IMG/VR virus record: IMGVR_UViG_3300023091_000012
Span: 1 to 33,339 of that record
Origin: a virus
DNA: 33,339 nucleotides
Reading direction: 5' to 3' (one strand)
Within the stretch, counting starts at the first letter, position 1. Every line of letters starts with the position of its first letter. Position numbers and translations under genes: made by a program. Below the pieces are notes generated by a model, which was given only the letters and a program-made list of their open reading frames with translations, did not search any database and had not been told where the DNA came from. Below, piece after piece: positions 3,038 through 29,862 of this stretch.

Positions 3038-3246
3038 AGCATCTCAATCATGGCATAGACTGGGATGCTAAAGCGACCCTGTGGAAATCCAAACTGGCCC
3101 ACTACCGGCTTAAGATTGGGGTTGCAAACGAGGAATGCTTGCCGTAAAATGATTCCAGCGGGGTTGCTCCCGTCGCCTGTCGCCTGACAAGGCTTAGAGG
3201 GGGGATATTTCACCGGCCCCCCTCCGCCAAACTCAAGCATAGGCAT
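3034..3246 (-). CDS. Possible small unknown protein, 70 aa
   Basis: This frame ends in an ATGA overlap with the next minus-strand gene, which favours coupling. It contains VVGQFGFPQ, encoded by the right copy of the 29-bp repeat. No Shine-Dalgarno is visible before its ATG, and no family or domain was recognised. It may be an accidental frame over a regulatory or recombination sequence. Confidence 0.25.
   Translation of the reverse strand: MPMLEFGGGGPVKYPPSKPCQATGDGSNPAGIILRQAFLVCNPNLKPVVGQFGFPQGRFSIPVYAMIEML
3078..3106 (-). repeat. 29-bp perfect inverted repeat, right copy
   Basis: Exact reverse complement of 56-84. Together the copies bracket about 3 kb. Both sit a short distance upstream of inward-reading genes: 29 bp to the ATG at 113 on the left, and 40 bp to the minus-strand ATG at 3037 on the right. 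The match ends sharply at both sides. Confidence 0.9.
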
Positions 3247-10837: not shown

Positions 10838-10852
10838 GATAGGATTGTTACA
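10816..10852 (+). repeat. Pair of TGTTACA sites 30 bp apart
   Basis: TGTTACA occurs at 10816-10822 and 10846-10852, exactly 30 bp (about three helix turns) apart. The second copy overlaps the ATG of the next gene. The complementary motif forms another pair at the same spacing at 12358-12394. Possible operators. Confidence 0.5.
10840..10845 (+). promoter_or_regulatory. -10 box TAGGAT, leaderless type
   Basis: TAGGAT ends six bases before ATG 10852 and lies between the two TGTTACA sites. A second overlapping TAGGAT lies at 10835-10840. Confidence 0.35.
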
Positions 10853-11196
10853 TGCTTTGGATTTGGCTAGGCCGAGCGTTCTTCTGGTTCCTCCGGCTGT
10901 TCCTTCCCCGGTCGATTCTCCCGTCCCCTCCCGCGAAACCGAAGCAGCACAAGCCGGTAAGCCTGAAAGAACCATGTCCGGCCTGTCACCGGCCCGGAAC
11001 AATCACGGTCGAGCATGTAACGGTCTCGACAATGCCCGGAAAGCCTGCCGCCATCCGGCAGAATGCGATGCTTTACAGTTGCAGCGCATGTAGGGGTTTT
11101 TGGTACTGCAAGCCGGATTATGCCGTAGGCTACGGCGGAAAGCAGTTGGGACCGGATGACATTCATGGACGGGAAGTGAAAGGATTGGCGAGATGA
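10852..11196 (+). CDS. Hydrophobic N-terminus plus zinc-ribbon protein
   Basis: The first ~20 residues (LWIWLGRAFFWFLRLFLP) could be a membrane anchor or amphipathic helix. A Pro-rich linker follows, then a zinc ribbon with CPACHRPG at the front and LYSCSACRGFWYC at the back, about 40-95. The function is unknown. Its ATG lies under a TGTTACA site, and its stop overlaps the next start (ATGA). Confidence 0.6.
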   Translation: MLWIWLGRAFFWFLRLFLPRSILPSPPAKPKQHKPVSLKEPCPACHRPGTITVEHVTVSTMPGKPAAIRQNAMLYSCSACRGFWYCKPDYAVGYGGKQLGPDDIHGREVKGLAR

Positions 11197-11730: not shown

Positions 11731-11955
11731 ATGGCCCACGCCTTTCTAAATCCCGATAGCCAAGTCCACGTGCAGCAGCGATGTACGAAGGTAGCTTTCC
11801 CATGCCGCAACGGAGCCATGAAGGCGGCGCGGACGGCCCGCAATCCTGTCGGCGTAGTTGATCGCGGCGAAGGGACGCTGAGGGCTTACCGGTGCAGGAT
11901 TTGCGGCGGTCATTGGCATCTGGGACACCTGACGAAGCAGGGGAAAAAGCGGTGA
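11731..11955 (+). CDS. Small zinc-binding protein, 74 aa
   Basis: Cys residues at VQQRCTKVAFPC and YRCRICGGHWHLGH could form one zinc site. The rest is basic. ATG 11731 follows GAGG at 11723-11726; a TTG at 11713 would add six residues. The stop TGA overlaps the next ATG (TGATG). Such CRICGGHWH endings recur in small phage proteins of unknown role. Confidence 0.55.
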   Translation: MAHAFLNPDSQVHVQQRCTKVAFPCRNGAMKAARTARNPVGVVDRGEGTLRAYRCRICGGHWHLGHLTKQGKKR

Positions 11956-12362
11956 TGGAAGAAGACGACCCCGTGACCCGCTGCCCGCACTGCGGCCTAA
12001 ATCAATACCGCACGCACAACGGTTGCTGTAGGCGCTGCTCGAAGCCGTTGACACTCCCAGCCTACAAGTTCGATCTTGACCGGCAACCAACAAATGAAAT
12101 GCTCGCCCTGGCGACAAAGCTGGTACTCTGCGCACACCGCGGCGAGAGATCGCAGCGGCAGATGGCCAAGCAGTTGAAATGCAAGCGGACGTACATATCG
12201 AAGTACGAGAACGGGCACTGCACACCATCGCCGATGCACATTGAAAGGTTTGCGGTAGCCTTTGGAATTCCGACCTGGCGGCTGGTTTTGGAGATCGAGT
12301 GCCTGGCGCGGGCGCTGGGCGCGATCGAGGATGTAGCACTTCCTCAAAGTTTACAGTTGTAA
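11955..12362 (+). CDS. XRE-family regulator with N-terminal zinc ribbon
   Basis: DNA-binding regulator, 135 residues. The first ~30 residues carry a zinc ribbon, CPHCGLNQYRTHNGCCRRC. Residues ~55-110 form a helix-turn-helix of the XRE/Cro type (RSQRQMAKQLKCKRTYISKYENGHCTP). Such fusions are familiar to me from Acidobacteria. It lies between two pairs of 30-bp-spaced TGTTACA/TGTAACA sites, and the second pair overlaps its stop codon. It is therefore a good candidate to bind them and control the flanking genes, which is inference. The start overlaps the upstream stop (TGATG). Confidence 0.75.
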   Translation: MEEDDPVTRCPHCGLNQYRTHNGCCRRCSKPLTLPAYKFDLDRQPTNEMLALATKLVLCAHRGERSQRQMAKQLKCKRTYISKYENGHCTPSPMHIERFAVAFGIPTWRLVLEIECLARALGAIEDVALPQSLQL

Positions 12363-12396: not shown

Positions 12397-12433
12397 CCCC
12401 ATCATTTCCCCGATTCCGGCCGTGTGATAGATT
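12397..12433 (+). promoter_or_regulatory. Late-type promoter, portal operon
   Basis: CATCATT (12400-12406) overlaps a -35-like TTTCCC (12405-12410); a 17-bp spacer and TAGATT (12428-12433) follow. It aligns without gaps with the promoters at 17701 and 24828. The -10 ends seven bases before the GTG at 12441. Confidence 0.6.
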
Positions 12434-12440
12434 GCGAATC

Positions 12441-14867
12441 GTGGCGGACCTCAATCAGCTCGCAGTCTTCAAGAAGGCCGGGAGCGCGGCCGTAGTCAGA
12501 CCGCTCGGCGCTTTAGCGCAGATGCTTACCCGGCTCCAGGGTAGCTTGTACCAAGCCCCATCGGATGTAATCCCCGGCATGAAGCCGACGGACTTTCCGA
12601 GTCCCCTACAGCCCGTCGCCCCATTCGGACCGCCTGACGCCCAGCCGCTCGGCCTCAATATGCAGATGGGGCAGAACCTCATCTTTACACCCCGGCCCGA
12701 TTCGCGGTACACGGCGGCCGATTTGCAGGCGCTGGCGCGGTATCCGCTAGCAAGGATGTGCATCAGCAACGTTGAGAACATCATCAGTTCTCTTGGCTGG
12801 AAGATTCAACTTCGGACGCAGCCTGGCGAAGACCAGAAAGAGCGCGAAGCCAAGCAACTTAAAGACGACACAATTCTAAAACTGACCGACTTCATGTCAT
12901 GCCCAGACGGTGAGCATGAGTTTCAGGACTGGGTACAGCCGCTCATCGACGACATGCTGCGAATCGATGCGGGCTGCTTTTTGATTCGGAAAGCGCCGGA
13001 TGGAACAGTGTATGAATGGCGCGTCATGCAGGGTGCGTACATAACTCGGCTGGTGGACGCGAACGGCTACACCCCGCAGTCTCCGGCCCCTGCTTATCAG
13101 CAGCTTTGGGATGGAATCCCTCGCGTCAATCTAACTACCGACCAGTTGATTTACCGGCCCCGCAAGATCGTTTATGAAGTCGGAAACGTGGCCTCGCAAC
13201 TTTACGGACTGGCCCCCACGGAAGAATTAGCCCCCGAGCTTGAAATCGGAATCCAGCGGCTCCGCTACGTCACAAACTTCTACAAGGACGGTTCGATTCC
13301 AAATGTCCTTTGGGTAGTTCCGTCCGACGCTTCGCCCGATGTCGTCAAGACCGCAATGGACTATCTAAATGCCGACATGAGCGGCAACCTTGAGGCGCGG
13401 CGGATGTTTAGATTCGCCCAGGGGTTCAGAAGTTCGGAGAGCGCCAAGGAAGACCTGATCAAGCAATTCGAGGAGCCGAAACTATCGGACGAATTCGACG
13501 ATCTACACACGCGCAAGGTCTGCTTCGGATATGGCGTGAGCCCGCAGCGGTTACTAAAAATGCAAAATCGCGCAACAGCTCAGACCAATCAGGAAGCCGC
13601 CGAAGAGGAAGGAGTTGCGCCGTTCCGTGAGTGGGTTGAAAAGGCTATCAACTTTACACTCCAGCGCAAGATGGGATATCAGAAATACGAATTCAAGTTC
13701 GACATTTCGCAAGATCCCGATCCGACGAAGCAGGCAGAAATTGACGCCACCGATCTAAAGTCGGGCATTGCCACGATCAACGAAAAGCGCGTAGCCCGCG
13801 GCTGGGACCCACGGCCCGAGGCGGAAGCCGATCAGTTAGGGAACTGGCTCACTACCGGATGGATGCCGATCGATCAACTGCCCGCCACGCCCAGCGCCCC
13901 GGCAGCCAAACCCGGCAAGGGATGGGAGCCGAATCCGGACGATGAACCTCCCGCGCCAAAAGGCAAGCAGAAGGTAGCAAAATCCAACGATGATCCGGTT
14001 CTGAATCCGGGCCGCGACACGATCCGCGCCCGCCAGGCCGAAGCGCAACTATTCGCCCGCATGTATCACTTCTTCCACAACATCAAATCTTCAATGGTCA
14101 TCGTCGACCCGCATGTACACAAGATGGCGAAGGCGGATACGGAACCCGACGTGGTTCAGCAGCAGCAGATTGAGCAGATCGTCGACGCCATCATGGGCAG
14201 CATTCAATGGGATGCGCTTCCGGCCGCGGTTCAACCCGCAATTCAGGACGCAGCGTTAGATGGAGCGGCAATAGGTCTCGATCAGACGGAGCGCGCGGTT
14301 CAGTCCGGACCGCTGACCGTGACTCTCTCGCCAACGCCCGTGCGCGTAACGGCCAGCGCGACGATCAGCGATGTCAACCAGGTGGCCATGGATTACGCCA
14401 GGGACCGCGGCGCCGAAATGGTGGGCATGAAGTGGGTCGATGGAGTTTTGGTCCAAAACCCGAACGCGGCCATGGCCATCACAGACTCCACGCGCAATAT
14501 GCTCCGCGAAATCCTGACCGAAGCTTTTTCGCGCGAAACGCCGATGAGCGAGCTCGTGCAGAGAATTCAGGCCGCCGGCGTGTTCTCCGAAAAGCGGGCA
14601 AAGTTGATCGCCACAACCGAAGTAAAGTTCGCCATGGCCCGCGGCAACATCGAAGCGTGGAAGAAGACCGGGGTGATTCAGGCGGTTGAGTGGGTGCTGT
14701 CGGCCGATCACGAGGTAGACGATGAATGCGATGAGAATGCAGAGGCCGGCCAGGTGCCGGTCGGTGAGGCATTTCCATCGGGAGATGTTGCACCGCCGCA
14801 GCACCCCGCGTGTTTGTGCGCCCTTCGTATCGTCCACCTCAATCCACCGAAGAAAGTGAGCGCATGA
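12441..14867 (+). CDS. Portal protein fused to Mu F-like head morphogenesis protein
   Basis: The N-terminal ~475 residues resemble a phage portal: ALARYPLARMCISNVENIISSLGW near the start, TDQLIYRPRK, GLAPTEELAPELEIGIQRL and the CFGYGVSPQRLLKMQN stem region. A Pro/Lys-rich linker (~480-530) leads to a helical segment. The C-terminal ~130 residues match the Mu gpF/SPP1 gp7 minor-head domain: KLIATTEVKFAMARGNIEAWKK, then CDENA and HPACLCALRI. Fusion of the two in one 808-residue chain occurs in some phages. GTG 12441 is preferred because it follows a -10 box by seven bases; TTG 12432 would add three residues. Confidence 0.88.
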   Translation: MADLNQLAVFKKAGSAAVVRPLGALAQMLTRLQGSLYQAPSDVIPGMKPTDFPSPLQPVAPFGPPDAQPLGLNMQMGQNLIFTPRPDSRYTAADLQALARYPLARMCISNVENIISSLGWKIQLRTQPGEDQKEREAKQLKDDTILKLTDFMSCPDGEHEFQDWVQPLIDDMLRIDAGCFLIRKAPDGTVYEWRVMQGAYITRLVDANGYTPQSPAPAYQQLWDGIPRVNLTTDQLIYRPRKIVYEVGNVASQLYGLAPTEELAPELEIGIQRLRYVTNFYKDGSIPNVLWVVPSDASPDVVKTAMDYLNADMSGNLEARRMFRFAQGFRSSESAKEDLIKQFEEPKLSDEFDDLHTRKVCFGYGVSPQRLLKMQNRATAQTNQEAAEEEGVAPFREWVEKAINFTLQRKMGYQKYEFKFDISQDPDPTKQAEIDATDLKSGIATINEKRVARGWDPRPEAEADQLGNWLTTGWMPIDQLPATPSAPAAKPGKGWEPNPDDEPPAPKGKQKVAKSNDDPVLNPGRDTIRARQAEAQLFARMYHFFHNIKSSMVIVDPHVHKMAKADTEPDVVQQQQIEQIVDAIMGSIQWDALPAAVQPAIQDAALDGAAIGLDQTERAVQSGPLTVTLSPTPVRVTASATISDVNQVAMDYARDRGAEMVGMKWVDGVLVQNPNAAMAITDSTRNMLREILTEAFSRETPMSELVQRIQAAGVFSEKRAKLIATTEVKFAMARGNIEAWKKTGVIQAVEWVLSADHEVDDECDENAEAGQVPVGEAFPSGDVAPPQHPACLCALRIVHLNPPKKVSA

Positions 14868-14868
14868 G

Positions 14869-15162
14869 ATGAGGCAGTTCTTAATTGATATGTTGAAGCG
14901 GCTGGAGTTTTTATGTCCTCCGCCGGCGCGTTGTCATCACGTAATTACCTTGGCCCAATATTTTGGCAGCGACGAAACTGAACGGGCAAAAGGCAGGCTC
15001 TCACTGCGGGTCAACTGTGATGGCTATTTTTTCGGATTCTTTCTCGATGACGAAGATTTCCATCGAGAGGCCGAGGCTGTCGCCAACGATTTTGCTGAGT
15101 TCATTCGCAAAGAACAGACGGGACACAGGTTGACATTGGTGCCGGGCAGTACGGAGGGATGA
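14869..15162 (+). CDS. Unknown small protein, 97 aa
   Basis: Not recognised. ATG 14869 begins one base after the portal stop, with AAAGTGAG eight bases upstream. A short hydrophobic start is followed by FFGFFLDDEDFHREAEAVANDFAEFI, which looks like a strand then a helix. The stop overlaps the next start. It may be a capsid accessory protein given its place after the portal. Confidence 0.5.
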   Translation: MRQFLIDMLKRLEFLCPPPARCHHVITLAQYFGSDETERAKGRLSLRVNCDGYFFGFFLDDEDFHREAEAVANDFAEFIRKEQTGHRLTLVPGSTEG

Positions 15163-15410
15163 TGCGCATCCGCTTTTCGGAACGGCTCGGCACGATCGAG
15201 ATTGACGGCGTCCTGATCTCAGCCGGTGTGCTCAAAGAGATCGTCGACCCGGACAAGCGCCTTCTTTTCCGGTTCGTCCGCGAGGGTGGGATAATCAAAG
15301 CGACCGCGATCGATGAACGGTCTGCGATCTGGATTGACCCTGATCCAAACGACCAGTCAACAGAATTTGGAGTTGTGAACCAAAACAGTAACGAGGAGAA
15401 ACGATCATGA
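15159..15410 (+). CDS. Unknown small beta-rich protein, 83 aa
   Basis: Strands such as RLGTIEIDGVLISAGVLKEIVDP and LLFRFVREGGIIKATAI suggest a small beta fold. ATGATG gives two possible starts, at 15159 and 15162; GGAGG at 15153-15157 fits the second slightly better, while the ATGA overlap favours the first. The stop overlaps the next start. The function is unknown. Confidence 0.5.
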   Translation: MMRIRFSERLGTIEIDGVLISAGVLKEIVDPDKRLLFRFVREGGIIKATAIDERSAIWIDPDPNDQSTEFGVVNQNSNEEKRS

Positions 15411-16441
15411 AAAGGTCACTTGCAGCCATCGTCCTCGCGGTCATCTTGCCCATGGTCGCGTTCGCCACGCCCACAACCATCAGCGGTACTCAGGTCAATT
15501 ACCCGGTTTCCTTCCCGCTCCAGACGGGTCAATGGTGCTTCAACGGGGCCTGCGCCACGATCACCAATGGGGCATTCTCCGGCAGCTTCACCGAGGGAAC
15601 TGCGACCGTCACGATTACCACGGGTGCGCAAACGATTCTTACCGTACCGGGGGTAACGATTTCCACGTCAACCTATGACTGGGACAATTACGTCGCTCCG
15701 GCAGGGTCAACATTGAGCGGCATGGGAACGCCGACGATTCCATGCGCTATAGGCGCCGCATTTCAGCAGAATGATTCTCTTCCCCCGTATCAGGGCTGGG
15801 GATGCAAAACCGTGGCGGGCGCGACGGCCTGGATCGCGCAGGGAACTCCGGCCACGCAAATCGTATTGAATCTTCCGGTGAACGCAATCACGACTACCAC
15901 AACCGTATCCACCGCGGCGCCGGGGAATGTGCGCTCGATCATCGGGCAGGTTACAACCACGAATACCGGATACGCGAACGGCGGCAACAGCCTGGTAGGC
16001 ATTCGCGGCGTGGCTACATTGCCATCCGGAACCACGGCCACGAACGGATATGTGTACGGCGCTCAGGGAAAACTGATCGTTCAGGGCACCGTCAACGGCG
16101 GCGCGCTCTGGATGTTCGGCCTGCTTGGCCAGCTTGATCTATCCTCGGCCACGCTCACCGGGGCTGCCCATATTGCGCCGATCTGGTCCGACGCCGGCGC
16201 AACCGCACCTTCAGGGGCCTGCGCGTTCTGCGATTCGATGGTTATCACCAACACAACTGCGGCGACATTCAACTCCCTGATCTACGGCTACTCAAAGGCC
16301 ACGAGGCTGATGGATTTGACCGACAATGGCGGCGGCTACATCATCCCCGGAAGCGGAGCGAGTGCGGCTGTGAGCGGGTACCTGAAGATCAAGGTGTCAG
16401 GAACTGACGTTTATCTGCGCTACTACGCCGGAGCAAGCTAA
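15407..16441 (+). CDS. Exported beta-rich protein, possible virion surface or fibre protein
   Basis: A signal peptide (MKRSLAAIVLAVILPMVAFA) precedes about 320 residues rich in Thr, Gly, Ala and Ser with alternating strands, as in tail-fibre or adhesin-like proteins. The end (SGYLKIKVSGTDVYLRYYAGAS) is a strand pattern I associate with the tips of such proteins. A true signal peptide is unusual for a virion protein, so it may instead be exported and act at the host surface. SD: GAGGAG before ATG 15407. The stop TAA overlaps the next ATG. Confidence 0.6.
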   Translation: MKRSLAAIVLAVILPMVAFATPTTISGTQVNYPVSFPLQTGQWCFNGACATITNGAFSGSFTEGTATVTITTGAQTILTVPGVTISTSTYDWDNYVAPAGSTLSGMGTPTIPCAIGAAFQQNDSLPPYQGWGCKTVAGATAWIAQGTPATQIVLNLPVNAITTTTTVSTAAPGNVRSIIGQVTTTNTGYANGGNSLVGIRGVATLPSGTTATNGYVYGAQGKLIVQGTVNGGALWMFGLLGQLDLSSATLTGAAHIAPIWSDAGATAPSGACAFCDSMVITNTTAATFNSLIYGYSKATRLMDLTDNGGGYIIPGSGASAAVSGYLKIKVSGTDVYLRYYAGAS

Positions 16442-16743
16442 TGCGCCGGATCTACCTGGCAATTCTGCTGATGGGCGGGTGTCTCCCGATGCCCGCCCAA
16501 ACCGCGCAAGCAGTGCCGCCCGCAAAGACGGACAAGCCCGCGATTACCCGCCAGATGCTTGAGCAGCGTCTGGCTGAATTGAAGGCCGGCAAAGAGCAGG
16601 CGGTTGCGAACGTCAATGCTTTTGAAGGCGCGATACAGGAATGTTCGCATTGGCTTGATTTGCTCGAACCGCAGAAGCCAAAAGCAGAGCCTAAGCCCGC
16701 GTCAAATCCGGCAATCGAAGGCGCGGGGAAAAAGGAAGAGTGA
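16441..16743 (+). CDS. Exported small coiled-coil protein, possible lipoprotein
   Basis: The signal sequence MRRIYLAILLMGGCLPMPAQ has Cys after GG, a weak lipobox, or could be cut later at AQA. A helix follows (TRQMLEQRLAELKAGKEQAVANVNAFEGAIQE) and then a Lys/Pro-rich tail. Size and layout fit an outer-membrane spanin-type or periplasmic coil, but no family was identified. It is joined to the upstream exported gene by TAATG and is followed by a membrane-anchored coiled coil. The three may form a host-envelope module. Confidence 0.5.
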   Translation: MRRIYLAILLMGGCLPMPAQTAQAVPPAKTDKPAITRQMLEQRLAELKAGKEQAVANVNAFEGAIQECSHWLDLLEPQKPKAEPKPASNPAIEGAGKKEE

Positions 16744-16752
16744 GCGAGCCTC

Positions 16753-17271
16753 ATGGACTTTAACGCGGTGGACGTAGCGGCAAGACTCGGAGACACGATG
16801 ACCGCACTCAGTGAGCGCGTGGCGGCTTGCGAACATACCTCAAGGGAATTTGAGAAACTTCACGATGAGATACCGGGGCTATGCGTTCGCATATCGTTAA
16901 CGGAGAAATGGCAGGAAGCACACCCGGATACGCATCGCCTAGAAGGAAACGCTCTCTCCATTGCAAAGGCTGAAACTGACCGCCGCTTGCATGAAATGAA
17001 CGAGATGCGCAAGCAGATCGATAATGAGCGTGGAACTTTTGTAAACCGTGAACAGTACGAGCAACAACATGCGCGGCTCAGAGAAGACATTATGAAGGGC
17101 GCCGCGTATAACGACGCTAAGATTGCCGAATTGGCGAAGAGTTATGACGCTAAGATTTCCGACCTGACCAAGAGTCGCGATACCGCATCCGGCGAGCAAG
17201 GGTTTATTGAGAAGTTCTGGCCTTTGATTGTGGCTGTCGCCATACTCGTCGTGCAACACTTTTGGAAGTGA
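16753..17271 (+). CDS. Coiled-coil protein with C-terminal membrane anchor
   Basis: About 145 residues of charged helix (RRLHEMNEMRKQIDNERGTF, then AKIAELAKSYDAKISDLTKS) end in one hydrophobic helix FWPLIVAVAILVVQHFWK. This is the reverse polarity of typical spanins but is a common shape for phage proteins next to lysis or holin genes. No holin or endolysin was recognised nearby. It probably acts at the inner membrane; the role is inferred. Confidence 0.55.
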   Translation: MDFNAVDVAARLGDTMTALSERVAACEHTSREFEKLHDEIPGLCVRISLTEKWQEAHPDTHRLEGNALSIAKAETDRRLHEMNEMRKQIDNERGTFVNREQYEQQHARLREDIMKGAAYNDAKIAELAKSYDAKISDLTKSRDTASGEQGFIEKFWPLIVAVAILVVQHFWK

Positions 17272-17349
17272 GGCTAGCAAACTGGCACATCTAGAGGCCC
17301 TTTTTCACCTCCGAAACTTTATTTCATCGCTTGAACCCAAAGAGTAAAC

Positions 17350-17697
17350 ATGCCAGATACCAAAGTTGAACCCGCAAAGCAATACGTTGAGCCGACGCTC
17401 GATGAGCAGAGGCGGCTGATTCATGACGAAACCGTCCCCGAACCCATCCGCTGGTTCTGGCGGCAGCGGCTGTACGGGGCGGGCGGTACGGGGCGCAAGG
17501 GGATACAACAGGATCGAGTCCAACGCCTACAGGAAAGCCTCCGCGAGAATTTCAAGGTTCGGATGCTCGATAAGTTGGTGGGGGCAGTTGGAAACCAAAG
17601 TCCCAAATCCGCAGCAGAGCATCTACCCGGCAAGCGGAGAAAGCGCGCCCGTCGCCTCATGCGGCAACTCGCAAAAGTCGTAAAAACTGCCAGTTAA
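17350..17697 (+). CDS. Unknown basic protein, 115 aa
   Basis: Acidic N-terminal half (VEPTLDEQRRLIHDETVPEPIRWFWRQRLYG) and strongly basic C-terminal half (LPGKRRKRARRLMRQLAKVVK). No zinc or membrane features. Position just before the protease gene suggests a head-assembly or nucleic-acid-binding role. AAAGAG precedes ATG 17350. Confidence 0.5.
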   Translation: MPDTKVEPAKQYVEPTLDEQRRLIHDETVPEPIRWFWRQRLYGAGGTGRKGIQQDRVQRLQESLRENFKVRMLDKLVGAVGNQSPKSAAEHLPGKRRKRARRLMRQLAKVVKTAS

Positions 17698-17700
17698 CCC

Positions 17701-17735
17701 CCATCATTGCGCGGTTGCCATGCCTGTTGTATATC
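17701..17735 (+). promoter_or_regulatory. Late-type promoter, protease/capsid operon
   Basis: CATCATT (17702-17708) overlaps TTGCGC (17707-17712); a 17-bp spacer and TATATC (17730-17735) follow. It aligns without gaps with 12397-12433 and 24828-24861. The -10 ends seven bases before GTG 17743, so the protease message may be leaderless. Confidence 0.6.
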
Positions 17736-17742
17736 CCTAGAT

Positions 17743-19647
17743 GTGCAGCAGACCATCAAACCCGGCGAGTTCCTGAAGGCTGTTCCCATCGAAAAGGTGG
17801 ATGAGGCCAAGCAGGAAGCCTGGGGCACATTCACCGCCGAGGTTCGGGATTCCGACAATGAAATAGCCGACTACGCCTATCAGAAGGGGCGCGTTCAGGC
17901 CTGGTCCGACAATGAGAAGTCGATAGCCGCCGCGGCGGGGATGGAAGAATCCCTCGGCAATGTTCGGTTCTCCCACATGACCCTTCCGACCGGCAAGGTG
18001 ATCGCCCTGAACATGGACGACGGGCGAAAAACCATCGGCGGCGGAACATACCTGATGAACGTCGGCGATACGAAAACCTGGGACATGGTCGCCAAGGGGA
18101 TCTTAAAAGGGTTCAGCTTTGGCGGCCGCTACGACTGGCGCAAATGCGACGTTTGTGGTGAGCAGCTACCCAATGAGCAGGGCAACAACTGGTGCCCGGC
18201 CTGCAAGGAAACGGTCCCGGTACGGTACGGCGCCACGATTGCCGAACTTTCCGTGTGCGACCGGCCGGCGGTCCCGGTGGCGAACATTCTTCACATCAAG
18301 GCCGATGGCTCGACGGTGCCGGTGGAGGTAAAAGTGGATAAGGACGAAAAGAAGACCAAGCGCGTGGCCGGGGAAGACCTGACGGCCGATTGCTTCGCCC
18401 ACGTCGGAGATCCGGAAAAGACGGAAACCTGGAAGCTCCCCATCAAGTTCTCGACCGAGGAGAAAACCAAGCGCCACATCGTAAATGCTCTCGCCCGCTT
18501 CGCTTCGACTAAGGGCATTCCCGCCGATGAAAAGGCTAAAGTCAAGGCCAAGATCATCGCCGCGGCCAAGGAGCACGGAATCGAAGTCTCCGAGGACGAG
18601 GACAAGGCCGAGGTCCTGACGCTTGACCGGAGCTTCATCAAGGCTGAAAGTCAGCGCATCAAGGAAAGCATCCACGCCAAGGCCGCGGGCGCGGGTATCA
18701 CGCTGCGCAAGGATTTGTTCGATGTGGCGAACTTTGCCGAGGTACTCCAACGGATTGCATGGTTGCGGTATAGTGCGATTCAAGAACGGGACTACGAGGG
18801 CGATGAGTCCGACATTCCCGAGGAATTGGAAGAAAATCTGATCAGTCTCTCGGAGACTTTCCTTCGCATGGCGCAGGAAGAAACCGCGGAACTGGTAGCG
18901 GCCGCGAAAAAGGCCGGGAAGGTGACCACGATGAAAAAGGAAGTCGAACTGCCCGAGAATGTCGGCGACGTGATGACCGGCCATCTTGTCGATCAGGCTG
19001 CGCATAACGAAGTTCTGGCCGATGCCCACAAAGCAATGGCGGAACACCACACGGCTCAGGCCGCCGTTCACAAGGCCGCTCACGAGCACTTCAAGAAGGC
19101 GGCCGCAGACGGCGGCGAGCACGAGGAGCATCACAAGATGCACGCCGATATTGCCAAGGCCACGCATGAGCATCACCTGGCCAAGGCCGAGCACCACACG
19201 GCCATGCACAAGGCCCATTCGGAAATGGCCGCCAAGTGCGCGAAGTGCGCCGAGGACTTCGCCGACACGCCGGAAAAGAAAACCGCGCTGGCCGCGCAAT
19301 TCAAGACCGTGCGCGAGGCCAAGCCTGCAATTCGGAAGAGCAATGCGGCTCCCGTGGAGGTTGACGTGACCAACATGAGCGAAGTGGAGAAAAATGCCTA
19401 CGCTCGCATTCAGGGCGAGTACTACGCATCGCCCGAATATGCCAAAAAGGTGCGCGAATCGCTCGACGCCCAGGCCGTGGCAAAGCTCAACGCGGCAGCC
19501 AACAACGCATCGATCGCGGTCGGCGTTGAGGCGGGCGGAGACAACGGGAACATCTACGCGGTTCCGCGTGCCGGCCAACTGGACAAGAGCCAGCAGGACG
19601 AAGGCGAATTGACGGGCGCAACGAAGCTCTTCGATTTCATCAAGTAA
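17743..19647 (+). CDS. Capsid maturation protease with scaffold-like His-rich C-terminus
   Basis: The N-terminal ~185 residues look like a phage prohead protease of the XkdF type: WGTFTAEVRDSDNEI, RFSHMTLPTG, AKGILKGFSFGG and TIAELSVCDRPAVPVAN. Inside this domain a zinc ribbon is inserted, with Cys at 135, 138, 151 and 154. Residues ~206-285 resemble the DUF6582 helical unit often joined to these proteases. A coiled, His-rich helix follows (about 413-491) with roughly 19 His (for example EHHTAQAAVHKAAHEHF, HEHHLAKAEHHTAMHK). Scaffold function for the rest is inferred. GTG 17743 is chosen because it follows the -10 by seven bases; TTG 17707 falls in the -35. Confidence 0.8.
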   Translation: MQQTIKPGEFLKAVPIEKVDEAKQEAWGTFTAEVRDSDNEIADYAYQKGRVQAWSDNEKSIAAAAGMEESLGNVRFSHMTLPTGKVIALNMDDGRKTIGGGTYLMNVGDTKTWDMVAKGILKGFSFGGRYDWRKCDVCGEQLPNEQGNNWCPACKETVPVRYGATIAELSVCDRPAVPVANILHIKADGSTVPVEVKVDKDEKKTKRVAGEDLTADCFAHVGDPEKTETWKLPIKFSTEEKTKRHIVNALARFASTKGIPADEKAKVKAKIIAAAKEHGIEVSEDEDKAEVLTLDRSFIKAESQRIKESIHAKAAGAGITLRKDLFDVANFAEVLQRIAWLRYSAIQERDYEGDESDIPEELEENLISLSETFLRMAQEETAELVAAAKKAGKVTTMKKEVELPENVGDVMTGHLVDQAAHNEVLADAHKAMAEHHTAQAAVHKAAHEHFKKAAADGGEHEEHHKMHADIAKATHEHHLAKAEHHTAMHKAHSEMAAKCAKCAEDFADTPEKKTALAAQFKTVREAKPAIRKSNAAPVEVDVTNMSEVEKNAYARIQGEYYASPEYAKKVRESLDAQAVAKLNAAANNASIAVGVEAGGDNGNIYAVPRAGQLDKSQQDEGELTGATKLFDFIK

Positions 19648-19664
19648 CGGGCAGTTCACGAAAA

Positions 19665-19688
19665 GGCGCGTCACCCCGGTGGCGCGTC
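19665..19688 (+). promoter_or_regulatory. Stem-loop between protease and capsid genes
   Basis: GGCGCGTCACC pairs with GGTGGCGCGTC with two wobbles around a very short loop; no T-run follows. Such hairpins before capsid genes may slow transcription or set an mRNA processing end. Predicted from pairing only. Confidence 0.35.
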
Positions 19689-19722
19689 CCGAAGGCAAGC
19701 AAAACACGAGGAGGGTACCAGG

Positions 19723-21567
19723 ATGTTTGGCACACCAGTTTTCACTCGCGGCATGGGCGAGATCGTCCTGACGGACGATGTCTACAGGGGATTCACGGCG
19801 CAGCAGGAGGCCGCAGTCAAAACGTGGGTGGGCAACCTGCAAAAGAAGCACAGCAAGACCTTGAACGATATGTTGCGCGTCAAGGGCGCTGTCGGCTCCC
19901 TCAAACTGCCGGGCAATCCGGCCGATACAGCCGAAACCAACAAGCGCATGGCCCTCTACAATGAGGGCGCCGAGATGGCGAAGCACCGCATCTGGGAAGT
20001 GATGAAGGCCGGGCAGAAGATGGCCAAGACCGGCGTCACATCCTCGATCGGATTCAACTTCTACGACCTCCGCGGCCCGGTCGAACTGCTTTATCCGTTC
20101 TACACGCCGTTCCGCAACATGACCCCGCGTCCGGCTCCTCCGAATTCTGGCGTCGGCACGGCTGCTCACTGGCAGCGCATCACCGCGCCCGGATACGCCT
20201 ATCCCGGCGTGCCGGAAGCGCAGCGCGCCCAGATCACAGCGCCGAACATGGTCCCCTGCATTGCGACCTACAAGGAGTTCGGCAAGGAAAACCAGGTCAC
20301 CTACACGGCGGAGTTTGCCGGCGAGGGATTCAACGACAACCTGGCTACCGAGCGTCTGGACGGCCTTCTGGCTCTGTTCCTCGCCGAAGAGGCGCAGATT
20401 CTGAACGGCAACGGCGGCAACGGAACCGGCTCGAACGGCTTCCAACTCGGCACCGGCCCGACTCCGACCGTAGTTGCCGGGACCGCGCTTACGCCGGCCG
20501 GAACGCTCACATCCGGTCACTACGTCTCCGTCTGGTGCGTGGCCCTTACCGCCATGGGAAACCCGCAGAACGCGCAGTACGGCTACTACAATGCGCCTCT
20601 TACCGTGGCCGGCGGCCTGACTCCGACGTTCCAGTACAACGCGCCCGGCACCAATCAGCCGATCTCGATCGCCGGCGGCACGTCGGCATTGTCGGCAATG
20701 TCCAACTCGGCAACTCCGTTTCAAGTCACCGCCACTCTCAACGTCGTAGCCACCGTCACGCCGAAAGTCGGCGCCATGGGCGGCTATGCGTGGTTTGTAG
20801 ACTACGAGGCCACCAATACCGGCAGCACGGCTGGCGCTTATCTCTACGCCATCACACAGTTCCCGACGGTGACCATCAGCACGCCCCCGACCGTAACGAC
20901 AACCGCCTCCGCGTTCGTAGCCGCCGGCGGGAATGTTGACGAATCGGCCAACCCCTACGACATGGACGGATTGTTCGCCTGGGCCGCCACCTACGGCCAG
21001 TGGGTGAATCAGTTCGGCGCGGGTCCAAGCGGATCGAACTCCCTGACTTCGCTCGGAAACGGCAAGGTTCTCGAAGTCGAAACCATGCTGCAGACCCTGT
21101 TCACGATCTTCCAGACGGGCATCGACGAAATCTGGGGCGATCTGATCGCGGTCGAGTGCCTGGACAATGCTGTCCGTTACGGCGGCGCCTCGGCAACCGG
21201 CTACCAGATCATCCTCCAGCGCGATACTCAGAACAACATCCTGGGCGGCTTCGTCGTATCCGGCTATCAGAGCCGCTACGCCGTTGGCAACCCCACCGGT
21301 GCGAATGCAATTCCCATCCGCATTCACCCGATGATCCCGCCCGGAACGCTGCTGTTCAACATCCGGACCGTGCCGCCTGGCTACTCGCACAGCCGCCTGC
21401 CGTACATCTACGGCATGTTGGTTCAGCGCGACTACTACGGCATCGAATGGCCGCCGGTGTTCCGTGCATGGAATTTTGGGACATATGTCCATGAAACCTT
21501 AGCTCATCACTTCCCCGGCCTTTTGGGAGTGATCACGGGCATCGGAGCATTTGTTTCCCCGTCGTAA
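19723..21567 (+). CDS. Major capsid protein, 614 aa
   Basis: The large protein after the protease is the expected HK97-fold major capsid protein. GGAGGG lies seven bases before ATG 19723, the strong site expected for the most abundant protein. The N-terminal part is helical and charged, followed by strands (NFYDLRGPVELLYPFYTPFRNM). Residues ~240-400 are Thr/Gly/Ser-rich beta sequence and look like an inserted surface domain. The C-terminal ~150 residues (FTIFQTGIDEIWGDLIAVECLDNAVRYGG) return to a capsid-like pattern. It is unusually long because of the insert. A terminator follows at 21618. Confidence 0.78.
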   Translation: MFGTPVFTRGMGEIVLTDDVYRGFTAQQEAAVKTWVGNLQKKHSKTLNDMLRVKGAVGSLKLPGNPADTAETNKRMALYNEGAEMAKHRIWEVMKAGQKMAKTGVTSSIGFNFYDLRGPVELLYPFYTPFRNMTPRPAPPNSGVGTAAHWQRITAPGYAYPGVPEAQRAQITAPNMVPCIATYKEFGKENQVTYTAEFAGEGFNDNLATERLDGLLALFLAEEAQILNGNGGNGTGSNGFQLGTGPTPTVVAGTALTPAGTLTSGHYVSVWCVALTAMGNPQNAQYGYYNAPLTVAGGLTPTFQYNAPGTNQPISIAGGTSALSAMSNSATPFQVTATLNVVATVTPKVGAMGGYAWFVDYEATNTGSTAGAYLYAITQFPTVTISTPPTVTTTASAFVAAGGNVDESANPYDMDGLFAWAATYGQWVNQFGAGPSGSNSLTSLGNGKVLEVETMLQTLFTIFQTGIDEIWGDLIAVECLDNAVRYGGASATGYQIILQRDTQNNILGGFVVSGYQSRYAVGNPTGANAIPIRIHPMIPPGTLLFNIRTVPPGYSHSRLPYIYGMLVQRDYYGIEWPPVFRAWNFGTYVHETLAHHFPGLLGVITGIGAFVSPS

Positions 21568-21617
21568 AATCAACGATTTAGGTTAGCCACTGTTTCTAGG
21601 GGGCGGTGGCCCTAAAG

Positions 21618-21660
21618 CTCAAAAAGGCCAGTTCCGAGAGGGATTGGCCTTTTGAGTTTG
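21618..21660 (+). terminator. Terminator after the capsid gene
   Basis: CTCAAAAAGGCCA (21618-21630) pairs with TGGCCTTTTGAG (21645-21656) with one bulge. A-rich and T-rich arms flank the stem, so it could stop both strands; it lies between two convergent genes. Confidence 0.8.
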
Positions 21661-21773
21661 CGCATTCTTTGCACCCTGTATCCTGTGAATCATGGAGGGG
21701 CTTTACGGCGCTTTTCGGTAAATCTGAGGGCCACCCCACCGGCGACCCTCAAGCCATCGTTCTTCCGTCTCGC

Positions 21774-22343
21774 CTAGTTGACCGTAAGCGTGGTACTGGA
21801 CGATGCCGTCTCGTACCCGAAAGCATCGGTTGGGGTGAAAACAACTGACAGGCGGTGTGTGCCGGCAGGCAGCACGGCTCCTGGGCCGGGTGAATACGCA
21901 TAGGTTCCGGGCACGGATGCAGTAGCGTTCAACTGCGCCGCGCTGAGGGGCGTCGGGAAGGCGATAGGGGCGGGCGTAGGCCATGTGATGACCGGAACAA
22001 CGGCCTTCCTCTTCTCTTCGGCCGCTACTTCCGTATTGCGCTCATTGTGCGCGACGGCCTCCGCTTCCGCGGCATTGTCCGCCGAGTATGTTGCCGTGTG
22101 GCGAACGATTGCCGACAGCGCACCCTCTACCTCATTTGCGGAGATCCCGAACGGGATGGATGCCTGGAAAGCAAGCAATTCCTTGTTCGCGTCGTAGGAC
22201 CAGTCGATTCCGATGCCGTGGTCCCATGTTAGGAGGCCCTTCTGGCCGCCGAGTGCGAGGCCTTCAGCCTTGGCGCGCGTCTGGATCGCCTCAAACTGCT
22301 TTTCCGAAATGTCCTTGAACACCAATTTCTCTGTCCGCTTCAT
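21774..22343 (-). CDS. Ig-like (MBG-type) domain protein on the minus strand
   Basis: 189 residues from the ATG whose complement is at 22341-22343, with AAAGGAG upstream on the minus strand; an earlier ATG would add 12 residues. The N-terminal domain (KLVFKDISEKQFEAIQTRAKAEGLAL, then IGIDWSYDANKELLAFQ, ANEVEGALSAIV) resembles short proteins I know from Acidobacteria. The C-terminus (PVITWPTPAPIAFPTPLSA, ending TTLTVN) is a clear MBG/Ig-like repeat of the type found in surface proteins of that phylum. No signal peptide is seen. It is the only minus-strand gene in the structural region, so it may be a recent acquisition (moron) or a virion decoration protein. Confidence 0.75.
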   Translation of the reverse strand: MKRTEKLVFKDISEKQFEAIQTRAKAEGLALGGQKGLLTWDHGIGIDWSYDANKELLAFQASIPFGISANEVEGALSAIVRHTATYSADNAAEAEAVAHNERNTEVAAEEKRKAVVPVITWPTPAPIAFPTPLSAAQLNATASVPGTYAYSPGPGAVLPAGTHRLSVVFTPTDAFGYETASSSTTLTVN

Positions 22344-22398
22344 GAGGTGATTCTCCTTTTGGTGAGGCATCTGCCCCACGGAGTTAATTAGATACAGT

Positions 22399-22436
22399 CA
22401 CATGAGGCGCCGTCAGAGCTAATCTGACCACATGAG
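22399..22436 (+). repeat. Pair of CACATGAG sites 30 bp apart
   Basis: CACATGAG occurs at 22399-22406 and 22429-22436. The 30-bp spacing equals that of the TGTTACA and TGTAACA pairs. The second copy begins 30 bp before the -10-like TACACT at 22459. Confidence 0.5.
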
Positions 22437-22458
22437 TGAGCGGTTTGCCGTTTGGGTT

Positions 22459-22464
22459 TACACT
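22459..22464 (+). promoter_or_regulatory. -10 box TACACT, leaderless type
   Basis: TACACT ends seven bases before ATG 22472 with no Shine-Dalgarno between. Confidence 0.4.
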
Positions 22465-22471
22465 GTCCCTG

Positions 22472-22702
22472 ATGAGCGCACCAAAGTACGTTCCCTTAAA
22501 GCCGAAGATTGTCCGCGTAGACGGCCGTTGGCGCATTTTCCTGCCGCAGACGGTCTTCGGCGATCTGGCGTGCGGTGGTCAGCACGGGCCGTTTGCCTCG
22601 TGGGAAGATGCCCGCCGGGCTGCGTTCGGAATTGCTACGGCTTTGCACGCGAACCTCTGCCGGCAGAACCAGGGAGCGATTCAGATAGGAGCCGTGAACT
22701 GA
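22472..22702 (+). CDS. Small unknown protein, 76 aa
   Basis: ATG 22472 is chosen over 22436 because it follows a -10 box by seven bases. KIVRVDGRWRIFLP and FASWEDARRAAFGIATALHANL suggest a strand pair and a helix. It is the first gene of the connector and tail operon and has no recognised family. Confidence 0.5.
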   Translation: MSAPKYVPLKPKIVRVDGRWRIFLPQTVFGDLACGGQHGPFASWEDARRAAFGIATALHANLCRQNQGAIQIGAVN

Positions 22703-22703
22703 G

Positions 22704-23819
22704 ATGATCGGACCGACGCCGCTCGACCTCTGCACAATAGACGAAGCCGTCAACTGGATATTCGGAGCTCCGCAGAACGCCGGCCAAAACACAAGCGTCC
22801 TTCAGGCCTTGATTTCATCGCTATCCCTTGACATCCTGCGGCGCACGGGGCGGGCCAGCCAGAATGCCTCAATCCCCGCGCAGTCGCCATTTAACCAGGC
22901 CGTCAATTATTCCGAGTCCTACTCCGGCAACGGAAACTGTCTCCTGCAGCTCCGAAACTGGCCGATCCTGTCCGTCTCGTCCGTTACGGTCTTTTCGCAG
23001 CCGGTCCCGGCGTCTTCCGGTCCGAACAGTTGGGGATGGTTCATCGACGATAGCGGCCGCTTTCTCGGTGTACGGTTCTGGGGCTTGATGACCGGCTCCG
23101 GCGGATACTGGGGCGGCGGTTGGGCCGGTATCCGGGGTTATGGCGGCGGCCGTCCCGGATGGCCAAAGGCGATCGATTGCATTCAGGTGTCCTACTCGGC
23201 CGGTTTCGCCGCGCAGCCGATCCCGGATGAACTCCGAACCGTTCCCGCCCTGCCTCCCTCATGGGTCGCGCGCGGAGCATACGGAAATGGCCAGACGATC
23301 TTCGATGGAAAGAATATCCAGACATGCTCAATCATCGCCGGCAATGCCACGACGGCGAACGCCGGGGCGTCTACGCCGGTCTGGGGCGCGGACAAGGGCG
23401 CGGTGACACCGGACGGCGGAAGTATCGCATGGACGTGCCAGGGAGCGCCGTACACGGTCACCGTGAACCAACTGCCATGGGTATCCGATGGCGGTGTGAG
23501 GTATTTTTCCGGCGGGCTTCCTTTGACGCCGGTTCTGACCGCGCCGTCCGCCGGGCAGTATTATCTTTTGGGAAACGGCTCCTACCTGTTCAACTCCGCC
23601 GATGCCGGGAGTCAGGTGCAGATTAGTTATCAAACCGCCGGGACGCCGCTGGATCTGAAAGAAGCCATGCTGCGATGGGTGAACATGATCTACAAGAGGA
23701 GAGGATGGGAGGGCATCCGTTCGCTGATGCAGAAGGATGCCGGGTCGACGATTTACACCAGCTTCGAGATCGATCCGAGCGTTGCGAAGACGATTGAGTA
23801 TTACAAGCGGAGAGCATAG
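22704..23819 (+). CDS. Head-tail connector protein with inserted beta modules
   Basis: The N-terminus (LDLCTIDEAVNWIFGAPQ...LQALISSLSLDILRRTGR) and C-terminus (DLKEAMLRWVNMIYKRRGWEGIRSL) together look like a gp6-type head-completion/connector protein split by a large insertion. The middle contains strands typical of connector proteins (LQLRNWPILSVSSVTVF). Two beta modules then follow. The first contains GNIQT-like text (NIQTCSIIAGNATTANAG). The second (~249-311, PYTVTVNQLPWVSDGGVRYF, GQYYLLGNGSYLFNSADAG) recurs in the tail tube and tip proteins. The order after the capsid supports the role. Confidence 0.7.
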   Translation: MIGPTPLDLCTIDEAVNWIFGAPQNAGQNTSVLQALISSLSLDILRRTGRASQNASIPAQSPFNQAVNYSESYSGNGNCLLQLRNWPILSVSSVTVFSQPVPASSGPNSWGWFIDDSGRFLGVRFWGLMTGSGGYWGGGWAGIRGYGGGRPGWPKAIDCIQVSYSAGFAAQPIPDELRTVPALPPSWVARGAYGNGQTIFDGKNIQTCSIIAGNATTANAGASTPVWGADKGAVTPDGGSIAWTCQGAPYTVTVNQLPWVSDGGVRYFSGGLPLTPVLTAPSAGQYYLLGNGSYLFNSADAGSQVQISYQTAGTPLDLKEAMLRWVNMIYKRRGWEGIRSLMQKDAGSTIYTSFEIDPSVAKTIEYYKRRA

Positions 23820-24326
23820 ATGGCTGATGTCCGCCCAGGGCCGTTCCGTGAATCCGTAGGCGTCACGATCGACACCAACGCCGTCGGGCCGTTCCTCGAA
23901 TCGAAGACCGGGGCGATACGGGCGGCGCTGGCGGAGAAAATGGGTTTGACATCTAGGAATCTAGCTGTGGCGGTCAGCGCGAAGGTTGCAGGACAAGTGT
24001 TGCAGGTTCATACCGGGCGTCTGTCCGGCAGCATCCGAACGCTCCCGACCGAGACAAGCCCCAATGAGATTACCGGCGGCGCGGCGGCGGGCGGCGCTCA
24101 GGTGGTCTATGCGCGGCCCCTTGAATATGGCTCGAGGGCGCATATCATTCAGGCAATCAACGCGAAGGCTCTGCACTTTCAGATTGGCGGCAAGGAGATA
24201 TTCGCCAAGCAGGTGATGCACCCCGGAACCCGCGCCTATGCCTTCATGCGCGGAACCCTAGACGAGCAGGCCACGAGTATCATCGAGGGCTTTCAGGAGA
24301 CGGCAGCGGAGGCCGCGGCATCATGA
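23820..24326 (+). CDS. HK97 gp10-like head-tail joining protein
   Basis: QVHTGRLSGSIRT and VVYARPLEYGSRAHII are the hallmark of the HK97 gp10/tail-component family, which forms part of the neck. The C-terminus (YAFMRGTLDEQATSIIEGFQE) fits that family's closing helix. It begins immediately after the connector stop and ends in ATGA with the next gene. The family is recognised with good confidence. Confidence 0.78.
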   Translation: MADVRPGPFRESVGVTIDTNAVGPFLESKTGAIRAALAEKMGLTSRNLAVAVSAKVAGQVLQVHTGRLSGSIRTLPTETSPNEITGGAAAGGAQVVYARPLEYGSRAHIIQAINAKALHFQIGGKEIFAKQVMHPGTRAYAFMRGTLDEQATSIIEGFQETAAEAAAS

Positions 24327-24826
24327 AACTACCGGCAGAGACGGTCTATCGTGCAATTTTCGCCCAGGCGTGCTCCATCAACGCACCCCAGGCTAACGGC
24401 AATCCATCCCAAACGCCGCTTATCACGATGTCCCGCCGCTGGGTTCACTGGGACCAGGTTGGCGATATTCCGATGCCCGCCCTCTACCAACTTCAACCGG
24501 CGGACGGGATACGGCTCGTGCATGGTGAGCGCGGAATCACGAAGTATGAGTTGACGGCGTTTCTGTTCCTCTATTTTGCGGTTGACTCCGGCAACCTGAA
24601 CGCCTCGGCATCGCCTCTGCTGAACAGCTACTTTAACGCCATGGACCTGGCCTTTCAGCCCTCACTGATCGCCTTGAACGGTAAGCCGAACATGGGCGGC
24701 CGGCAGCAGCTAGGGCTCGGGCCGGCGCTTGAGGAATGCTGGATAGATGGAAGAGTTCCGTTTGATGAGGGACTTCTGGCGCCTCCCGCCATGCTGGTAT
24801 TTACCGTCAAGGCAATTTGCGGCTAA
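24323..24826 (+). CDS. Tail terminator/completion-like protein
   Basis: A 167-residue protein in the usual place for the tail terminator, between the joining protein and the tail tube. LPAETVYRAIFAQACSI starts the chain and WVHWDQVGDIPMPALYQLQP follows. KYELTAFLFLYF and PAMLVFTVKAIC look like the strands of a minor-tail U-like fold. The call rests mainly on position and size. It overlaps the upstream gene by ATGA. Confidence 0.55.
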   Translation: MKLPAETVYRAIFAQACSINAPQANGNPSQTPLITMSRRWVHWDQVGDIPMPALYQLQPADGIRLVHGERGITKYELTAFLFLYFAVDSGNLNASASPLLNSYFNAMDLAFQPSLIALNGKPNMGGRQQLGLGPALEECWIDGRVPFDEGLLAPPAMLVFTVKAICG

Positions 24827-24827
24827 C

Positions 24828-24861
24828 CATCATTGCCCGGTTTACCCCCGTGGTGTAGATT
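24828..24861 (+). promoter_or_regulatory. Late-type promoter, tail tube operon
   Basis: CATCATT (24828-24834) overlaps TTGCCC (24833-24838); a 17-bp spacer and TAGATT (24856-24861) follow. It aligns without gaps with the promoters at 12397 and 17701. Unlike those, it leaves a leader of about 40 bases before ATG 24909, which has GAAGGAG. Confidence 0.65.
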
Positions 24862-24908
24862 GCACTTGAGAAACAGCGGACCCCCTGGCCGCCCGAAGGA
24901 GAACCGCG

Positions 24909-29076: not shown

Positions 29077-29106
29077 TGTAAAATGGGGTAGTGTCGACCC
29101 TTGCGC

Positions 29107-29112
29107 TATACT
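29107..29112 (+). promoter_or_regulatory. -10 box TATACT, leaderless type
   Basis: TATACT ends six bases before GTG 29119. No Shine-Dalgarno or clear -35 is visible. Confidence 0.4.
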
Positions 29113-29118
29113 TGACCC

Positions 29119-29862
29119 GTGGCCACTCTACCGACATTACCGATCCCCCCCGGCGTCGAATGGGAATCTCACAAATCCCCCCGCTTTAACACGGTCACCC
29201 AGCATCCGGTAAGCGGAGCGCGCCCTGTATCGTTCAGCGTCTCGCAGTTTCCGAGCTGGGAATGGGATTTGTCCTGGTCGGTTTTGCGCGATCAAGGCTT
29301 ATGGCCGGAGTCGGAAGACGTGCCGGCGGGCGTCAATAACGCCAACGACCTTAAGCCGGATTTTTTTGCCCTGCAAGATTTCTTTTTAGCCATGAACGGC
29401 TCAAATGGCCGCTTTATCTACGATCCGGCCGCCAACCCGGTTCCGCTTGAGGATACCTACATCACGCCGATAATCGCCGGCACGCTGGTCAACGGCTACT
29501 CCGGCACTACCAACGGAACGCAAACCGTTTTCCAGTTGTATCGCACCAGCAAGGTGACAGGGTCGCTCGTTCCCGTCGAAGCGATCGATGCGCTGTCGGC
29601 CATCTCCAGCGACGTCGGAATCAATCCGTTTGCCCTCTACCTGGACGGTGCGCTGGTCAACTCCTCGCTGTACACGCTCTCGCAATATCCCCTACAGGTG
29701 ACGTTCGGGACGGCGCCATCGGCGGGAAAGGCATTGTCGTGGAATGGGAATTACGCTTACGTGGCAAAGTTCCTCGATGATACTCTCGACTTCGATCAGT
29801 TTGTCCAAAACCTCTACTCGCTTCAAAGTTGTAAGTTGGAGCAAGTGCCCCTCGGATTCTAA
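29119..29862 (+). CDS. DUF2460-type distal tail protein
   Basis: The first part (VEWESHKSPRFNTVTQHPVSGARP, then FFALQDFFLAMNGSNGRFIYDPA) matches DUF2460 proteins, represented by the distal tail protein (gp12) of gene transfer agents. The second half (FALYLDGALVNSSLYTLSQYPLQVTFGTAPSAGKALSW) is the beta part of the same family. It starts with GTG six bases after a -10 box. Four genes follow in the GTA-like order. Confidence 0.78.
   Translation: MATLPTLPIPPGVEWESHKSPRFNTVTQHPVSGARPVSFSVSQFPSWEWDLSWSVLRDQGLWPESEDVPAGVNNANDLKPDFFALQDFFLAMNGSNGRFIYDPAANPVPLEDTYITPIIAGTLVNGYSGTTNGTQTVFQLYRTSKVTGSLVPVEAIDALSAISSDVGINPFALYLDGALVNSSLYTLSQYPLQVTFGTAPSAGKALSWNGNYAYVAKFLDDTLDFDQFVQNLYSLQSCKLEQVPLGF

What the first reader, a model, noticed from the sequence alone, without database searches (positions are those of the whole stretch)
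12397..24861. Three structural operons share an ungapped 34-bp late promoter
At 12400, 17702 and 24828 the sequence from CATCATT through the -10 aligns without gaps. CATCATT is identical in all three, C/G/T positions follow in register, and the 17-bp spacer between TTKSCC-like and TAKATY-like hexamers is constant. About 19 of 34 positions are invariant (counted by eye). They lie upstream of the portal, protease/capsid and tail tube genes, the classic sites for coordinated late expression. The extra CATCATT block next to the -35 suggests a phage-specific activator site or a modified sigma requirement. This is a candidate undescribed late promoter of an acidobacterial-type phage.
Basis: partly seen in the sequence, partly recalled or inferred. 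Interest (0 to 1): 0.7.

Follow-up and report, generated by a model that had tools for sequence, protein, structure and literature searches.

The report
Shared leaderless promoters for phage structural genes
Three places in this phage genome carry nearly the same ordinary bacterial promoter in front of its particle-building genes, and two of them sit so close to the gene that the message probably starts at the first codon; the extra CATCATT letters are real but private to this one phage.

Summary
The sites at 12400, 17702 and 24828 share 19 of 34 positions without gaps, are alone in the window even at 3 mismatches (0.02 expected), and each is recovered from the other two. The explanation needs changing. 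In related phages (about 62-74% identical proteins; 7 promoters at the orthologous portal and protease genes), what is conserved is a sigma-70-type core: TTG/TTT, exactly 17 bp, TAnnnn. All 7 have TT at 17-bp spacing; no other spacing exceeds 3. The -10 then lies 6-8 nt before a GTG or ATG, in the window without a Shine-Dalgarno, so the portal and protease messages are probably leaderless. The third promoter has a leader of about 40 nt and an SD. CATCATT is not conserved in relatives: its last TT belongs to the -35, and (C)CATCA plus parts of the spacer are private to this phage. No sigma factor or Ogr activator was found. Best reading: host RpoD-type promoters for three structural operons, two leaderless, with a private accessory signal of unproven function; a new member of a known kind. 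Lateness, operon limits, start sites and the acidobacterial host remain untested.

The parts
12399..12404 (+). CCATCA, phage-private block directly upstream of the -35 (site 1)
   Evidence: identical in all three sites; not in relatives
12405..12433 (+). promoter core of site 1: -35 TTTCCC, 17-bp spacer, -10 TAGATT
   Evidence: orthologous core in L005, L009, L008
12441..14867 (+). portal gene, GTG start 7 nt after the -10, no SD: predicted leaderless; predicted transcription start about 12440-12441
   Evidence: portal; start context; N-terminus conserved from residue 1 in L005 and L009
17701..17706 (+). CCATCA, phage-private block (site 2)
17707..17735 (+). promoter core of site 2: -35 TTGCGC, 17-bp spacer, -10 TATATC
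   Evidence: rank 1 of 66,620 positions with a matrix from relatives only; alignment with 4 orthologues
   Evidence: families matched are of unknown function
19723..21567 (+). probable major capsid gene, second gene of the unit, with an SD (GAGGAGG)
   Evidence: phrog_13692 of unknown function, matches Brevundimonas phages in the same gene order; start context; 'capsid' is by position only
24827..24832 (+). CCATCA, phage-private block (site 3)
24833..24861 (+). promoter core of site 3: -35 TTGCCC, 17-bp spacer, -10 TAGATT
24895..24901 (+). Shine-Dalgarno GAAGGAG of the third unit (leader of about 40 nt)
   Evidence: phrog_8234 (unknown function) and phrog_16710 virion structural protein
11955..12362 (+). 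HTH_3 protein with an N-terminal Cys-pair motif, candidate regulator beside site 1 (role untested)

Best explanation
The three sites are promoters for the host's main (RpoD-type) RNA polymerase, each at the head of a block of structural genes, so that portal, protease/capsid and tail genes are transcribed from three matched starts. Conservation of the -35/17 bp/-10 core at portal and protease is shown by comparison; recognition by RpoD is inferred from its form. For portal and protease the -10 ends 7 nt before a GTG without SD, so the message probably begins at or next to the start codon and is translated leaderless; the third has a leader of about 40 nt with an SD. The shared CCATCA and the spacer matches are an additional, phage-private signal overlapping the promoter; a DNA-binding protein that sets the timing of the three promoters together is the most natural cause, but that step is inference and no protein is identified.
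For: 19/34 identity and uniqueness in the window. In 7 orthologous promoters of L005, L166, L236, L009 and L008 TT lies exactly 17 bp before the -10 in 7 of 7 (TTG in 4), at most 3 of 7 at any other spacing from 8 to 39. Alignments: TTG, TATA and GTG invariant before the protease; TTT, TA and the start region before the portal. -10 lies 6-8 nt from GTG/ATG in all of them. Similarity of the three sites stops at the edges of the promoter. No sigma-70 region 2 gene in the phage contigs. TANNNT about 12 bp before the start is the known leaderless signature (PMC3160421).
Against: No transcript data. The hexamers are far from the E. coli consensus; a generic sigma-70 scan does not list the sites. 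With a matrix from relatives only, sites 1 and 3 rank 23 and 24 of 66,620, not first. The -10 boxes of relatives were picked by eye from their distance to the start codon. No clear promoter at the orthologous place of site 3: only one relative (L088) was found there and it is ambiguous; the L088 protease promoter is also unclear.
Confidence: 0.72

Rival explanations
1. CCATCA plus spacer positions form the site of a phage-encoded activator (working like Ogr of P2 or C of Mu), without which polymerase does not fire these weak promoters; this is the late switch.
For: Non-hexamer positions are shared far above chance; the window pairs are 3 of the 4 best of 45 promoter pairs; the hexamers are weak; an HTH gene lies just upstream of site 1.
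Against: Not conserved in relatives or elsewhere in IMG/VR; no dyad or second half-site seen; no Ogr family protein; no activator identified.
Confidence: 0.25
2. The shared extra bases are a repressor operator over the promoters (working like a stoperator or operator) that keeps structural genes silent early in infection or in a lysogen.
For: The block overlaps the -35 and the spacer, where a repressor would block polymerase; an HTH_3 protein of the Cro/CI type is encoded next to site 1.
Against: Only three copies, all one orientation, all on promoters; no palindrome; no integrase or lysogeny evidence was sought or seen.
Confidence: 0.15
3. The three promoters are copies of one ancestral promoter (duplication or recombination) and the extra identity is only descent, without function.
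For: The extra bases are private to this phage; sites 1 and 3 agree at 25, sites 2 and 3 at 24 of 34 positions.
Against: Identity stops at the promoter edges on both sides; the orthologous genes of relatives already have their own promoters at the same places, so site duplication would have had to overwrite them.
Confidence: 0.2
4. A phage or alternative host sigma factor reads the motif.
For: -35 TTKCSC differs from the E. coli consensus; weak in a generic scan.
Against: The conserved part in relatives is TTG/TTT-17 bp-TA, the sigma-70 form; no Sigma70_r2 gene. The genome is incomplete, so a gene elsewhere is not excluded.
Confidence: 0.06
5. Chance similarity of three unrelated intergenic stretches.
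For: CATCATT alone is no more frequent than chance.
Against: 0.02 matches expected against 3; leave-one-out; core conserved in relatives.
Confidence: 0.01

Closest known systems
P2 late promoters (PP, PO, PV, PF) and their activator Ogr
   Same: A few promoters with one shared extra sequence, each heading a block of late structural genes (PMC3931495).
   Different: P2 promoters carry TGT-N12-ACA and depend on the zinc-finger protein Ogr; here the shared block is CCATCA touching the -35, and no Ogr_Delta protein is found.
Bacterial leaderless genes with a -10 box (TANNNT) next to the reading frame
   Same: -10 box 6-8 nt before GTG/ATG, no SD (PMC3160421; PMC12340547).
   Different: Here a -35 at exactly 17 bp is conserved as well; in Deinococcus most such genes lack a classical -35 (PMC12340547). 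Phage structural genes rather than host genes.
Start-associated sequences of Cluster K mycobacteriophages and stoperators of Cluster A
   Same: Short one-orientation repeats before phage genes (PMC3203893).
   Different: SAS (GGGATAGGAGCCC) lie 3-7 bp from the start codon and are proposed to act in translation; here the repeat contains the -35 and -10 and ends 47 bp upstream of the third gene. Stoperators were not compared by sequence.

Membership tests
sigma-70 (RpoD)-type promoter | two hexamers related to TTGACA and TATAAT, 16-18 bp apart | tested here: met
   TTG/TTT and TA conserved at exactly 17 bp in 7 of 7 orthologous promoters; the rest of the -35 departs from consensus and the generic scan misses the sites
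sigma-70 (RpoD)-type promoter | transcription by RpoD holoenzyme | not testable with these tools
   needs in vitro transcription or start-site mapping
leaderless gene (portal, protease) | -10 box so close to the start codon that the transcript has no SD leader | tested here: met
   TAGATT-N7-GTG and TATATC-N7-GTG, no SD; 6-8 nt in relatives
leaderless gene (portal, protease) | mRNA 5' end at the start codon | not testable with these tools
   no RNA data
P2/Ogr-type late promoter | Ogr/Delta zinc-finger activator encoded by the phage | tested here: not met
   no PF04606 match in the companion contig G002 and relatives; the known genome is incomplete
P2/Ogr-type late promoter | TGT-N12-ACA upstream of the -35 | not tested
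   not scanned systematically; not seen on reading the three upstream stretches
phage-encoded sigma factor regulon | sigma-70 region 2 gene in the phage | tested here: not met
   PF04542 not found in the window, G002 and four related contigs; controls ring
start-associated sequence (SAS) | repeat within 3-7 bp of the start codon | tested here: not met
   site 3 ends 47 bp before ATG 24909
late promoter | active late in infection | not testable with these tools
   inferred only from the structural genes downstream

The most novel reading that the evidence does not exclude
A phage-encoded regulator reads CCATCA and spacer positions to switch on three structural operons together, and within this phage group the recognised sequence has changed between lineages (CCATCA here, AATCTTnnGCAnAATCG at the L005 portal and L236 protease) while the sigma-70 core and the leaderless geometry stayed fixed: rapid turnover of late-promoter dialects.
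Probability: 0.2. Interest if true: 0.55.

Novelty: new member of a known kind. Interest (0 to 1): 0.35.

Why it matters
It gives exact, testable start sites for the structural operons of an uncultured phage group and suggests that portal and protease genes there are translated from leaderless messages, which a mechanical gene call misplaces (the ORF list starts them at TTG 12432 and TTG 17707, inside the promoters). It also separates what is conserved (core and spacing) from what is private (CCATCA), which is where any phage-specific regulation must lie.

Tried and rejected
Motif scans of IMG/VR: the 20-base pattern hits only the identical phage; a 15-base pattern hits 65 stretches, and no contig other than that same phage is listed twice, as chance would give. 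Scan of about 2.3 Mb of fetched relatives with the 34-bp matrix: nothing above 17.5 bits. Second copies of a promoter-like motif seen at the portal of distant relatives L012-L014: none found. Generic sigma-70 scan: does not list the sites, and finds no more than shuffles. Host assignment: no tRNA genes; no Acidobacteriota genome set could be addressed; the one genome-collection hit is a contig binned to a Methanoregulaceae archaeon MAG, which I take to be mis-binned but did not test. HTH protein: a first homologue search used the wrong frame; repeated correctly it has only a 50-residue, 42% match in L166. Within-phage sharing of promoter extras as a general rule: not seen in L009, weak in L008. 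Start-associated sequences, Ogr promoters and an own sigma factor were considered and set aside as in the membership table.

Full report
What was checked. The three sites exist at the stated positions. CATCATT begins at 12400, 17702 and 24828, and 19 of 34 positions agree in all three without a gap. CATCATT by itself is expected about five times in this window and occurs four times, so the weight lies in the whole pattern: with up to three mismatches it occurs only at these three places, against 0.02 expected. Matrices built from any two sites recover the third far above everything else. Even with both hexamers left out, 11 of 22 positions are invariant, and the held-out site is first among non-training positions for two of the three sites and fourth for the other. 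The agreement begins at the C before CATCATT and ends with the -10; in the stretches compared beyond it only one further column is invariant.

What is conserved in relatives. Portal, protease and capsid searches brought in phages with about 62-74% identical portal or protease proteins: L005, L009, L008, L236 and L166. In all of them the portal or protease gene begins with GTG or ATG 6-8 nt after a TAnnnn box. With that box fixed, TT lies exactly 17 bp upstream in 7 of 7 promoters, TTG in 4; at any other spacing at most 3 have TT. MAFFT alignments show TTG, TATA and GTG invariant before the protease, and TTT and TA before the portal. This is the form of an RpoD promoter. The -10 boxes were chosen by eye from their distance to the start codon; the -35 was not. 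A matrix made only from relatives puts the window's protease site first of 66,620 positions and the other two at ranks 23 and 24, so the core alone would not single those two out.

What is not conserved. The five bases before the -35 match CATCA at 1-3 of 5 positions in relatives. In IMG/VR the strict motif occurs only in IMGVR_UViG_3300039216_000224, a contig identical to the window over the 19.5 kb compared; it carries the first two sites and no further copy within 3 mismatches, and it appears to run on about 5 kb upstream of the window. The extra block is therefore private to this phage at present sampling. Two other phages, L005 at the portal and L236 at the protease, share another extra motif around the -35; among 45 promoter pairs compared outside the hexamers, this pair and the three window pairs are the best four. 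Within L009 no such sharing is seen, and in L008 only weakly. It is a lead, not a result.

How it most likely works. Host RNA polymerase with its main sigma factor starts at about 12440, 17742 and 24868. The first two messages begin at or next to the GTG of portal and protease and are translated without an SD; the third has a leader of about 40 nt with GAAGGAG before ATG 24909. Leaderless initiation with a TANNNT box about 12 bp before the start codon is established in many bacteria; Acidobacteria average 13.3% of genes in three genomes, Actinobacteria 19.2% and Deinococcus-Thermus 39.4% (PMC3160421). This is compatible with an acidobacterial host but is no evidence for one. Shown: motif, spacing, conservation, position relative to start codons. 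Inferred: RpoD, leaderlessness, co-regulation, lateness, any regulator.

Gene labels. Portal is confirmed.

Candidate regulators. An HTH_3 protein is encoded at 11955-12362, directly upstream of the portal promoter, near small Cys-pair proteins. No sigma-70 region 2 and no Ogr_Delta match was found. A near-palindromic box TGTWACA occurs six times (1.1 expected), with two pairs 30 bp apart, one just upstream of the portal promoter; it is absent from the other two promoters, so it is not the common signal.

Verdict. A correct and well-seen pattern, best explained as sigma-70-type promoters of a phage's structural operons, two of them leaderless, with a private accessory sequence whose function is open.

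Noticed in passing
window 3877, 6073, 10816, 10846, 12358, 12388; L005 2203, 2276, 2431, 3807, 3830: Near-palindromic box TGTWACA six times (1.1 expected). Two pairs exactly 30 bp apart, at the terminase gene end and just upstream of the portal promoter; also paired upstream of the L005 portal (23 bp apart). Possible operator.
   Followed up: partly
window 10807-10854; L005 2275-2284: The gene at 10852 and its L005 homologue both start at an ATG that overlaps the TGTWACA box (TTGTTACATG, TTGTAACATG); TTACAA-17 bp-TAGGAT-N6-ATG in the window may be another leaderless promoter.
   Followed up: no
window 29074-29121: DUF2460 gene at 29119 has TATACT 6 nt before its GTG and no SD: possibly a further leaderless start, without CATCATT and without a clear -35.
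   Followed up: no
window 935-1826; L169: An IS1-like transposase is one 296-aa frame in the companion contig G002 but is split into two frames in the window.
   Followed up: no
window 56-84 and about 3078-3106: 29-bp exact inverted repeat; the first 60 bases of the window are not found in the companion contig, perhaps an assembly end effect.
   Followed up: no
L169 (companion contig beyond the window start): N6/N4 DNA methylase fused to a helicase C domain, a C5 cytosine methylase and an AAA_34 protein.
   Followed up: no
window 21774-22379 (-): A 201-aa reading frame on the opposite strand after the capsid gene, in the structural region; no Pfam match.
   Followed up: no
L005 3869-3885, L236 7258-7274: A different shared motif, AATCTTnnGCAnAATCG, over the -35 of the L005 portal and the L236 protease promoters, found in no other fetched locus.
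   Followed up: partly
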